In this document: in pieces, positions 61,316 to 64,000 of the stretch
Layout: each line of letters opens with the position of its first letter
Numbering within the stretch: position 1 is the first letter of the stretch
Source of the DNA: Serratia marcescens subsp. marcescens ATCC 13880
Lineage (GTDB): Bacteria; Pseudomonadota; Gammaproteobacteria; Enterobacterales; Enterobacteriaceae
NCBI RefSeq assembly: GCF_017299535.1
Contig: NZ_CP071238.1
Span: forward strand, 2,046,001-2,110,000
DNA: 64,000 bases
Direction of reading: 5' to 3'
The notes under the pieces: model-generated
Database searches by the model: none
Told to the model about the DNA's origin: nothing
The model's input: the letters and a program-made list of their open reading frames with translations, nothing else
Position numbers and translations under genes: made by a program

Positions 61316-61614
61316 ACCCCTTCATTCCCCGGCCGGCTTGGCCGGCCCGCATTCCCTTTTCTGATCCACCCGGCGGGGCTCCGTGCACTCGCCGTTCTCT
61401 TATCGTTCCCTGCCTCACTGTTGTCCCCTTCATCATACAACCCGTGGTGAGGGGATCTCGTTATCCTCAGAGATAGAATGCTGGTTATGCATACAGGCTT
61501 GCTGTGTGCTTAACCGGTTTTACAGCTTCGGTGCGGTGAGCCCAGTGGCCAGGGAATGCTGGGGGAATGAGCGCTGTTAACCGCCATCAAACAGGACGTA
61601 AGAGGGTAACAATC
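61316..61614. promoter_or_regulatory. leader region of the S74/bacteriocin locus
   Basis: 299 bp between pepT and the S74 gene. GGCCGGCTTGGCCGGCC near 61330-61348 could end pepT transcription. A LexA-type box lies at 61481-61496 and a TAGAAT -10 directly before it. No other gene is seen. Confidence 0.5.
61474..61496 (+). promoter_or_regulatory. LexA (SOS) box over a putative promoter
   Basis: CTG-GTTATGCATA-CAG (61481-61496) is a full CTG-N10-CAG with an AT-rich palindromic core and ACAG on the right. TAGAAT at 61474-61479 directly precedes it and would be blocked by LexA. It lies about 120-135 bp upstream of the S74 gene. Colicin operons are typically controlled this way. Only one box was found; many colicins have two. 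Confidence 0.6.
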
Positions 61615-62754
61615 ATGGCAGAAGAAAAGAAAAATGCTCAGGTGATTAACGGCGTTAATGACGATATCGCCGAACTGAAATCGCTGTCTACACTGCGCCA
61701 GCGCGTGGTCAGCGACGGTGAAATCGTCTCCAAATCGGCCAATGGTTTTCGGCTGGCAAATGGCAATACCGGCGTGATGCTGCGTAATGATGGACGCGAT
61801 TTTTATGCGCTGACGACGCCGGGTGGCCAAGCGCTTAACGGACAGTGGAACACCCTGCGCCCGTTCTCGTTCAATTTGGCGTCTGGCCGGGTTGCACTGC
61901 GCAATGGGGTGGACATTTCCGGCGGGGCGATGGTCTCGCATGACGCGGGTATCTCCACCTCGACCACCGGCCCGATCCCGCTTATCAATGGACAAATCTA
62001 TAACTCCGCACCTTTAAAAAGTGATTTCACTAGCGGTAGTGTCACCACAACCATCATGTTGGGATCCCGCGTCATTCCGGGGAAGGATAACTTCGGGTTA
62101 ATTTCTTACCGCGACTGGCAGGGGAATTGGAACGAACTTCAAGTCAGAACTAACGCGGAACTTTCCGTCGGGCAATTGACCAAACGCAATTCTGACGGCT
62201 GGTTCTTTGCCAGCCCTCCTCAGAATGCAGATAGCAATAAAGAATCCCTTACCAAGGGATTGTACTTGCAAGCCCCGAATAACAAGCATGCCAATATTTA
62301 TCACCATGACCATGTGAAATACAACGAACTCGTTATCAACGTGGGCAATGGCGGTCGGAATAGTTGGTTCGTTTTCAAAGAAGATGGCTATGCCGTTACC
62401 GGCGGTGGCTGGAACAGCAGCTCCGACGTCCGCATGAAAACGGACATCACCCAAATTGCTGGCGCATTGGACAAGTTGGCCAATATCGGCGGCTACACCT
62501 ACCTCAAACAGGGCGTGCCGGAAGCCGGGGTGATCGCTCAGGAAGTGGAGAGCGTATTGCCGCAGTCGGTCACCCAAACCGAATTGAAGCTTAACGACGG
62601 CAGCGTGCTGAAGGATGCCCGGGGCATCAATATCAACGGCGTGGTGGCGCTGCTGGTTGAGGCGCTTAAGGAGGAGCGCTCACTTCGAGATGCCGAGCGT
62701 GAAGCATTTGAAGCTCGATTGGTTGCTTTGGAAAAAGCGATTGTGAACGCCTGA
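61615..62754 (+). CDS. phage tail-fibre-like protein with S74 intramolecular chaperone domain
   Basis: 379 residues from the ATG at 61615 (AGAGGGTAAC before it; an ATG at 61567 is rejected). Residues about 1-120 resemble tail-fibre shaft (AEEKKNAQVINGVNDDIAEL, then VSDGEIVSKSANGFRLANG); the middle (130-265) is a beta-rich binding part not recognised. From about 267 comes the S74 autocleaving chaperone: NSSSDVRMKTDITQIAGALDKL with likely cleavage at Ser270, GVIAQEVESVLPQSV, and a C-terminal coiled coil (345-379). The chaperone trims itself off after trimer folding. No other tail genes are near, so a phage remnant or a co-opted accessory of the bacteriocin 106 bp downstream is possible. Confidence 0.75.
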   Translation: MAEEKKNAQVINGVNDDIAELKSLSTLRQRVVSDGEIVSKSANGFRLANGNTGVMLRNDGRDFYALTTPGGQALNGQWNTLRPFSFNLASGRVALRNGVDISGGAMVSHDAGISTSTTGPIPLINGQIYNSAPLKSDFTSGSVTTTIMLGSRVIPGKDNFGLISYRDWQGNWNELQVRTNAELSVGQLTKRNSDGWFFASPPQNADSNKESLTKGLYLQAPNNKHANIYHHDHVKYNELVINVGNGGRNSWFVFKEDGYAVTGGGWNSSSDVRMKTDITQIAGALDKLANIGGYTYLKQGVPEAGVIAQEVESVLPQSVTQTELKLNDGSVLKDARGININGVVALLVEALKEERSLRDAEREAFEARLVALEKAIVNA

Positions 62755-62779
62755 TTAATATCGGTAGCGATAGTTTGCG

Positions 62780-62820
62780 CTGCGTGGTGCTCAGCGCTTT
62801 CGCCGGAGAGCACCACGCAG
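62780..62820 (+). promoter_or_regulatory. 13-bp perfect hairpin between S74 and bacteriocin genes
   Basis: CTGCGTGGTGCTC (62780-62792) and GAGCACCACGCAG (62808-62820) pair over all 13 bases with a 15-nt loop. A T-run is lacking, so it is either a weak terminator of the S74 gene or an mRNA structure before the bacteriocin ribosome site. Confidence 0.6.
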
Positions 62821-62860
62821 GCATTCACTTTACAATACGATGACGGAAAGGAACTCAATT

Positions 62861-64000
62861 ATGGGTGGATTTAATTACGGTGGTGGCAAAGGGGACGGCA
62901 CCAATTGGAGTAGTGAGCGGGGAAATGAACCGGCACCTGGCGGTGACTCTCAGGGTAATGGCGGAAGAGACAGCAGCAGCAGTGGGAACACCCAGGCGGC
63001 AGCCATACAGCGACAGATGAACGCCATTAAAAGTGACTCCTACGTTAATAATGTACTGAAAGAATTACAAAAAAAAGTGCGTGCGGTGGCGCCTTACGCA
63101 AAGGTTTACCTTTCAGGTGTTGATGATACCGGCAGAGTGCAGCTTCAGGTTGGCGAGATTAACCGTGCTGAAGAAGCGGCTGTGAGCCAGGCCTTGGCGT
63201 CAGTCCCTCAGGTTAAAAATGTACTAGGCATGGGATTCCCTAATGATGCCAAAGTCGTGTTTGGTGCGAATATTGATACTCCTCACCGCATCGGTAATTA
63301 TCAAGGTGTTCCTAACGGAAACAATAATGGCAGTAATTCTGCTGCCGAAGACAAGGCGTCACTGGCAACATATTCAGAGGTACTGAACGGTAAGATTCCC
63401 CCCGGATTCTGGCTTGATAATGACAGGGTCATGACCGAAGTTACGATAAAATATGAAATCAACGGTGGTGGAAAGGGAGGTGACCGTACAGGGTACAGGA
63501 AAAGTAACGCCGAGGTGCCTTCTCTGACAGCAGCCTATAAACAATTTAAGCAGGTAGAGCGGGAAGTGGCGGAAGAAGCGCGTCGAGCCGAAGAAGCCCG
63601 CAAGGCTGAAGAGACCCGCAGAGCCGAGGAGGCCCGAAAGGTGGAAGAGGCCCGCAGAGTCGAAGAGGCTCGTAAGGCTGAAGAGGCTCGCAAAGCCGAG
63701 GAAGCCCGTAAGGCTGAAGAGGCCCGCAAGGTGGAAGCAGCTAGAAAAGCGTTGTTCGCTAAAGCGGGTATTATGGACGCTCCGGCGTATACGCCGGAAA
63801 AGCTAAAAGCGGCCAATGCGGCGCTGGCGGCGGCAGGCGCCATGGTGCTCAACCGCGCCCCCGCCATGCTGCAGACGTCGATGGTCGGGCAAGGTGTGAT
63901 GACGACCACGAGCGAACTGGCCGGCTGGGCAGCGAGCGCATCGTGGCGGGCGGCCTACGAAGTCGGCAGTATACGCGCCGGCACCGCGGTCGCCGCCGGA
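62861..64000 (+). CDS. colicin-like bacteriocin, 5' part (Tol-dependent type)
   Basis: 380 residues in an open frame that runs off the right edge without a stop; ATG at 62861 follows AAAGGA. The N-terminus is Gly/Ser-rich and disordered, with DGTNWSSE at 12-19, which matches the TolB box of group A colicins (DGSGWSSE in E-type). Residues about 48-190 include a helix and an unknown domain (VYLSGVDDTGRVQLQVGEI). A 60-residue charged helix (238-297) built from hexads like AEEARK follows, then LFAKAGIMDAPAYTPEKL and NAALAAAGAMVLNRAP, typical of the pyocin-S/colicin translocation segment. The killing domain and immunity gene lie beyond the window. Confidence 0.75.
   Translation, partial: MGGFNYGGGKGDGTNWSSERGNEPAPGGDSQGNGGRDSSSSGNTQAAAIQRQMNAIKSDSYVNNVLKELQKKVRAVAPYAKVYLSGVDDTGRVQLQVGEINRAEEAAVSQALASVPQVKNVLGMGFPNDAKVVFGANIDTPHRIGNYQGVPNGNNNGSNSAAEDKASLATYSEVLNGKIPPGFWLDNDRVMTEVTIKYEINGGGKGGDRTGYRKSNAEVPSLTAAYKQFKQVEREVAEEARRAEEARKAEETRRAEEARKVEEARRVEEARKAEEARKAEEARKAEEARKVEAARKALFAKAGIMDAPAYTPEKLKAANAALAAAGAMVLNRAPAMLQTSMVGQGVMTTTSELAGWAASASWRAAYEVGSIRAGTAVAAG
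63572..63751 (+). repeat. ten tandem 18-bp units inside the bacteriocin gene
   Basis: Ten in-frame units of 18 bp coding for hexads such as AEEARK, AEEARR, VEEARR. Copies differ at third positions, so the repeat is old or has been drifting under selection for the same protein. A long straight charged helix is expected. Differences in copy number would change its length by six residues each. Confidence 0.85.

What the first reader, a model, noticed from the sequence alone, without database searches (positions are those of the whole stretch)
61474..64000. SOS-controlled pair: S74 tail-fibre-like protein plus Tol-dependent colicin
A LexA-type box is followed by a tail-fibre-like protein with its own S74 autocleaving chaperone, and 106 bp further by a colicin-like gene with a TolB box. 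Tail fibres bind cell surfaces and need S74 domains to trimerise; colicins use their own receptor domain. Finding both on one apparent transcript, without other tail genes, suggests either a phage remnant that supplied the promoter, or a fibre co-opted to help target or release the bacteriocin. Phage-linked klebicins are known in Klebsiella, so association with phage genes has precedent; a functional partnership does not, to my knowledge.
Basis: partly seen in the sequence, partly recalled or inferred. Interest (0 to 1): 0.8.

Follow-up and report, generated by a model that had tools for sequence, protein, structure and literature searches.

The report
Klebicin-type operon with tail-fibre partner
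A Serratia-like genome carries a known but poorly understood kind of bacterial weapon, a colicin-like toxin encoded together with a small protein borrowed from virus tail fibres, and comparison with relatives suggests that the two are kept together by selection rather than by accident.

Summary
An imperfect LexA-type box is followed by a 379-aa fibre protein (Gp34_trimer stem, variable middle, S74 end) and, 106 bp on, by a 671-aa colicin with a ColA-like Tol N-terminus, a Pyocin_S central domain and a colicin-D tRNase domain. Immunity and an orphan toxin/immunity module lie beyond the window.

The pairing is not unprecedented: it is the klebicin C/D kind of cluster (kcp/kdp plus kca/kda), already noted in Klebsiella, Erwinia and S. 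marcescens WW4.

I add evidence that the fibre is a dedicated partner, not a phage relic. In 30 genomes of the genus, fibre and the close form of the central domain occur in the same 15. In a tree of 57 central domains the fibre-linked ones form one clade (100/99). Of 39 such loci none has an intact colicin without an intact fibre, though N-terminal, toxin and fibre-middle types changed at least 10, 14 and 15 times. The fibre is under purifying selection.

Probably it is an accessory adhesin, perhaps docking on the central domain. That is inferred: a published KlebC hybrid kills without it. New member of a known kind, with an open, testable function.

The parts
61479..61498 (+). LexA-type box, one mismatch in the CTGT/ACAG core
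   Evidence: equivalent boxes at -133 to -157 in most Serratia relatives
61615..62754 (+). Fibre protein gene (kcp/kdp-like), 379 aa
61615..61686 (+). Conserved N-terminal 24 residues; candidate docking segment (inference)
61687..61974 (+). Conserved stem, aa 25-120 (Gp34_trimer match at aa 23-85)
61975..62400 (+). Variable, recombining middle of the fibre, aa 121-262
62401..62751 (+). S74 chaperone end, aa 263-379, with conserved SSDxRxK motif; self-cleavage inferred from the family
62780..62820 (+). Intergenic inverted repeat with 13-nt perfect arms and no T-run; role unknown
62861..64000 (+). Colicin gene, first 380 of 671 aa inside the window: Tol-type N-terminus, N domain, long helix of EEARK repeats, start of the central domain. 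It continues to about 64876 (central Pyocin_S and colicin-D tRNase domains), followed by immunity (about 64873-65139), orphan toxin end and second immunity (about 65342-66074) in L002

Best explanation
A chromosomal bacteriocin operon of the klebicin C/D kind. DNA damage (SOS) is expected to switch on one transcript for a fibre protein, a colicin and its immunity protein. The window's colicin enters rivals through Tol and its C-terminal domain cuts tRNA like colicin D. The fibre is a maintained partner of the toxin: it presumably folds as a trimer with the help of its S74 end, which then cuts itself off and leaves an adhesin with an exchangeable middle. Most likely the adhesin works with the toxin outside the cell, binding surface structures of prey, and attaches by its conserved N-terminus or stem to the constant central (Pyocin_S) part of the colicin. 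Shown from sequence: gene order, domains, co-inheritance with one central-domain clade, purifying selection, exchange of the fibre middle. Inferred: SOS induction, trimer, self-cleavage, toxin activity and Tol use of this copy, adhesion, docking. My odds: klebicin-type operon 0.95; fibre functionally tied to the toxin 0.85; adhesin aimed at prey about 0.5; direct docking about 0.3.
For: Fibre 66.6% identical to a protein annotated 'klebicin C phage associated protein'. Same 15 of 30 genus genomes have fibre and central domain at 60% or more, side by side; same 8 of 392 family genomes. 35 fibre-linked rows (a fibre match of over 200 aa) in one clade, 100/99, with two relic-fibre rows, in a tree of 57. 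33 of 39 clade loci have both genes intact, 0 of 39 an intact colicin without an intact fibre. dN/dS medians 0.091, 0.165 and 0.125 for stem, middle and S74 part. Middle replaced between L002 and L038 (dS 2.2 against 0.12 and 0.17 in the flanks); 12 middle types. Gene gap of 3 nt in L044, L045, L051 and 4-nt overlap in L099. LexA-type box upstream in 33 of 42.
Against: Purified KlebC-E9 hybrid toxin kills and its authors hold that the KlebC domains suffice for transport; 'phage' does not occur in that paper (PMC8324772 passages), so the fibre is not needed for killing in that assay. That this KlebC belongs to the fibre-linked clade was not tested here. Docking rests on co-inheritance alone; linked genes can travel together. 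Intact fibres with lost or broken colicins exist (L038, L042, L043, L050). 9 of 42 fibre loci lack a box by the rule used. No structure supports docking: the fibre model is poor.
Confidence: 0.55

Rival explanations
1. The fibre acts for the producer and its kin, not on prey: released trimers cover surface receptors and block phages, or re-binding of the toxin, during SOS release.
For: Fibre of phage descent with a recombining middle; no need for it in a published killing assay (PMC8324772); expected to be induced with SOS, when prophages are too.
Against: Does not explain why the fibre follows one clade of colicin central domain and not other colicins. Not tested directly.
Confidence: 0.2
2. 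Phage relic: the fibre gene only came with, or supplied, the SOS promoter and has no role.
For: The LexA-type box lies upstream of the fibre, not of the colicin; phage origin; some loci lie in lambdoid prophages.
Against: Purifying selection; intact in front of 33 of 33 intact colicins of the clade through many module swaps; in the prophages L099-L101 the cassette sits beside NinB, not among tail genes.
Confidence: 0.08
3. The fibre is the toxin's essential receptor-binding subunit, standing in for a missing receptor domain, as suggested for Kcp/Kdp in the Klebsiella literature.
For: PMC10269471 reports that Kcp/Kdp resemble tail-fibre ends with a function comparable to colicin receptor-binding domains (passages).
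Against: Fibre-linked colicins have N-terminal modules of known receptor or translocation types: colicin B-like in L044, colicin E/cloacin-like in L040. The KlebC-E9 hybrid kills alone.
Confidence: 0.09
4. The fibre helps to release the toxin in place of a lysis protein.
For: A pattern scan found no convincing lysis-lipoprotein ORF after fibre-linked colicins, while it found that of colicin D in L161.
Against: Fibre-less relatives other than L161 gave no convincing one either. The pattern is crude: it also gave doubtful matches in L031, L033, L108, L109 (fibre-linked) and L156, L162 (fibre-less). Pfam and PHROGs show no membrane-active domain in the fibre.
Confidence: 0.07

Closest known systems
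Klebicin C and klebicin D clusters (kcp-kca-kci, kdp-kda-kdi; Chavan et al. 2005, not read, known through PMC10269471)
   Same: Fibre-like gene directly upstream of a nuclease bacteriocin with a colicin-D-like central domain, immunity gene downstream; relatives on Klebsiella plasmids are 61-67% identical in the fibre.
   Different: Chromosomal here; Tol-type rather than Ton-type N-terminus; extra orphan toxin/immunity module. The original records were not available, so no direct comparison with Kcp/Kdp themselves.
Serratia marcescens WW4 bacteriocin cluster SMWW4_v1c20330-20390 (PMC3717176)
   Same: Klebicin C phage-associated-like gene, klebicin-D-like S-type pyocin gene, immunity genes and further toxin pieces in a row.
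   Different: DNase-type toxin ends there, colicin-D tRNase here; sequences not compared directly.
Colicin D (cda, E. coli)
   Same: Central and tRNase domains, immunity; central domain 46% identical.
   Different: Colicin D has no fibre gene upstream and a lysis gene downstream (L161); its N-terminus differs.
T4-like long tail fibre proteins (gp34/gp37) and other S74 fibres
   Same: Gp34_trimer stem and S74 end.
   Different: No best place of 60% identity or more in 50,697 phage records; short, no tail genes next to it here; residues 1-40 unmatched in 18 distant fibre loci.
Telocins of Klebsiella telomere phages (PMC12042878)
   Same: Colicin-like toxin carried by a phage element.
   Different: The passages seen describe toxin and immunity pairs, no fibre partner.

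Membership tests
Klebicin C/D-type phage-associated bacteriocin cluster | Fibre-like (kcp/kdp) gene directly upstream, same strand | tested here: met
   66.6% identity to a protein annotated klebicin C phage associated protein; gap 106 bp
Klebicin C/D-type phage-associated bacteriocin cluster | Nuclease bacteriocin with colicin-D-like central domain | tested here: met
   Pyocin_S and Colicin_D domains; 5znm match
Klebicin C/D-type phage-associated bacteriocin cluster | Immunity gene downstream | tested here: met
   PF09204 in L002:6874-7137
Klebicin C/D-type phage-associated bacteriocin cluster | Direct relation to the type records AY578793 and AY578792 | not tested
   AY578793 is not in the collections; AY578792 was not tried
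Klebicin C/D-type phage-associated bacteriocin cluster | Killing activity | not testable with these tools
   -
Group A (Tol-dependent) colicins | TolB-box N-terminus | tested here: met
   aa 1-45 match colicin A 3iax_B, E=2.2e-7; by homology only
Group A (Tol-dependent) colicins | Lysis gene in the operon | tested here: not met
   none seen by a crude pattern scan of 3.5 kb downstream; listed as a usual, not a strict feature
Tailocin or prophage tail module | Neighbouring tail, sheath or baseplate genes | tested here: not met
   scanned neighbours are household genes
S74 autocleaving fibres | PF13884 domain with SSDxRxK motif | tested here: met
S74 autocleaving fibres | Self-cleavage and trimer formation | not testable with these tools
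   single-chain model poor
S74 autocleaving fibres | Known receptor-binding fold of the middle region | tested here: inconclusive

The most novel reading that the evidence does not exclude
A two-component bacteriocin: a phage-derived trimeric adhesin docks on the constant Pyocin_S domain of this colicin clade and helps bring it to prey, so that targeting is set by two independently recombining modules, the fibre middle and the colicin N-terminus.
Probability: 0.28. Interest if true: 0.82.

Novelty: new member of a known kind. Interest (0 to 1): 0.5.

Why it matters
The fibre gene of phage-associated klebicins has been on record since 2005, and nine searches of the open library showed me no test of what it does. 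Its tie to one clade of colicin central domain, its purifying selection and its recombining middle mark it as a functional partner and name the domain to test for binding. If it docks, colicin-like toxins can be aimed by a separate adhesin, which would bear on how their host range is predicted and on why purified toxins may behave unlike natural producers.

Tried and rejected
Phage relic: disfavoured by selection and retention. Replacement of a lysis gene: fibre-less relatives mostly lack one too. Intergenic hairpin as a terminator: strong (z -3.48; 1 of 200 shuffles as good) but without a T-run, and the same repeat is not in the other gaps listed (L032 has a different 12-nt one).

Seven central-domain positions differ in fixed fashion between 37 clade and 16 other rows (four distant rows left out beforehand). 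Any long branch gives some, so I draw nothing from them.

I expected fibre and colicin decay to go together. Where the fibre is broken the colicin is broken too (L045, L049, L106, L160; L047), but the reverse fails (L038, L042, L043, L050). Not in the count of 39, because no full central domain is in view: L043, L047, L048, L050, L103, L144, L145, L155, L159. The 39 include near-duplicates (L044/L051; L100/L102/L104/L143).

The N-terminal 24 residues as a klebicin-only segment: weak. Residues 1-40 had no match in 18 distant fibre loci, but a 40-aa query has little power, one full-length alignment starts at aa 7, and two phage records align from residue 1 at about 24%.

Papers: PMC3717176 section 17 read whole and other passages seen. 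Passages only: PMC10269471, PMC8324772 (also abstract and outline), PMC12042878, PMC12927319, PMC10906532, PMC5536347, PMC6817936, PMC12312913, PMC3482391, PMC6455109, PMC9990079. PMC2821528: search listing only. Chavan 2005: not held (101).

Full report
WHAT IS THERE. At 61479-61498 sits an imperfect LexA-type box. The fibre gene runs 61615-62754 and codes for 379 aa with a Gp34_trimer stem match (aa 23-85) and a Peptidase_S74 match (aa 270-319); PHROGs rank long tail fibre distal subunits first. After 106 bp a colicin gene starts at 62861 and, read from the genome, codes for 671 aa. Its first 45 aa match a colicin A chain (3iax) and aa 289-671 the central and tRNase domains of colicin D (5znm). 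An immunity gene overlaps its stop, and an orphan colicin-D toxin end with a second immunity gene follows.

NEIGHBOURS. The cassette lies between an M20 peptidase gene (pepT by recall) and an ATP-grasp gene, a RoxA-like gene and phoQ/phoP-like genes. Six loci including this one (L002, L028, L032, L038, L105, L110) have the pepT-like gene upstream, and five of them also show the roxA-like gene; neither was in view in the other loci searched, whose flanks differ in length. Other pairs lie on plasmids. Three IMG/VR loci that I looked at are in lambdoid-like prophage regions: NinB lies downstream in L099, L100 and L101, and O- and P-like genes upstream in L099 and L101. There the cassette is not among tail genes.

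PRECEDENT. [quoted passage not shown] Kcp/Kdp were described as similar to tail-fibre ends and comparable to receptor-binding domains (PMC10269471 passages, citing Chavan 2005, which is not held). The window protein is 66.6% identical to one annotated 'klebicin C phage associated protein' (CP011634). S. marcescens WW4 has the same kind of row of genes (PMC3717176). The pair as such is therefore known.

CO-INHERITANCE. In 30 genomes of the genus the fibre (E<=1e-20) is in 15. A central domain of 60% identity or more is in the same 15, about 1-1.2 kb behind the fibre on the same strand. Three more genomes (G203, G207, G208) have only a 46-49% form and two of the 15 (G205, G216) a further 48% form elsewhere; no fibre was found beside these five. 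In 392 family genomes 8 have the fibre at E<=1e-40, and the same 8 have a central domain of 55% or more. In G299 it appears split over two contig ends, with two stops in the second piece. Eleven further genomes have only forms of 52% or less, and one (G048) a 124-residue piece at 70%; none of these twelve has the fibre at that threshold. An order-wide draw of 295 found only the own genome. Of nine plasmid records with a near-complete fibre (H1-H9), seven have a colicin of this clade behind it (three of these are intact-looking duplicates or near relatives, two are broken: L042, L045) and two have transposon-type sequence instead.

ONE CLADE. In a tree of 57 distinct central domains (59 before two identical ones were dropped; over 200 aa, no stop) all 35 rows with a fibre match of over 200 aa lie in one clade with support 100/99. 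The two other rows in it (L049, L160) keep a relic of the fibre's S74 end. Of 39 loci of the clade, near-duplicates included, 33 have both genes intact by length criteria, 0 an intact colicin without an intact fibre, 2 an intact fibre with a broken colicin, 4 both broken. On the same tree the colicin N-terminus changed type at least 10 times (10 types, 29 rows; L038 and L042 left out), the toxin end at least 14 times (5 types, 30 rows) and the fibre middle at least 15 times (12 types, 31 rows); types are single-linkage clusters at thresholds of my choice. Pfam names some of them: colicin D tRNase, E3-type Cytotoxic, colicin/pyocin DNase, ColA_N, Cloacin. A 'DYNNG' N-terminus occurs with the fibre (L040, L046, L099) and without it (L113). 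So the fibre follows the central domain and not the receptor or toxin module.

SELECTION AND MOSAICISM. Median dN/dS between fibres is 0.091 for aa 1-120 (267 of 630 pairs with dS 0.1-1.5), 0.165 for aa 121-262 (112 of 630) and 0.125 for aa 263-379 (204 of 630). Between this locus and L038 the flanks have dS 0.12 and 0.17 but the middle 2.2, which points to replacement by recombination; that phage fibre tips do the same is recalled. In L112 the S74 end is missing and another end, matched by phage families, takes its place.

EXPRESSION. A LexA-type box lies upstream of 33 of 42 fibre loci against 54 of 2100 shuffles; among 37 loci scanned between the genes one box was found, in the broken locus L106. 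The genes are 3 nt apart in L044, L045 and L051 and overlap by 4 nt in L099. This fits one SOS-controlled transcript; nothing was measured.

MECHANISM. A purified KlebC-E9/Im9 hybrid kills, and its authors state that the other KlebC domains hold the information needed for transport (PMC8324772 passages). Fibre-linked colicins L044 and L040 have N-terminal modules like colicin B and colicins E. The fibre is therefore unlikely to be a missing receptor domain. An accessory adhesin tied to the constant central domain fits best; adhesion and docking are inference. A shield on the producer's own surface is the main rival.

VERDICT. A klebicin-type operon, a new member of a known kind, whose long-known partner gene now has a clear pattern of co-inheritance and a sharp test.

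Noticed in passing
L002:7343-8075 (beyond the window, about 65342-66074): Orphan colicin-D toxin end (70% identical to the main one) with its own immunity gene behind the operon, as in other swappable toxin arrays.
   Followed up: partly
L108 (G205:C1:3417500-3430000): Five orphan toxin-end pieces in a row behind one fibre-linked colicin.
   Followed up: no
L099, L100, L101 (IMG/VR contigs): Fibre-colicin-immunity cassette inserted next to NinB in lambdoid-like prophage regions, away from tail genes.
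   Followed up: partly
L112:1046-2278 (G074): A colicin-linked fibre whose S74 end is replaced by another phage-family end.
   Followed up: partly
window 62780-62820: Strong GC-rich hairpin between fibre and colicin genes, no T-run, same repeat not seen in relatives.
   Followed up: partly
L002:8488-9282 (minus strand): R2K-clade ATP-grasp gene between the cassette and the RoxA-like gene; not found in the other loci compared.
   Followed up: no
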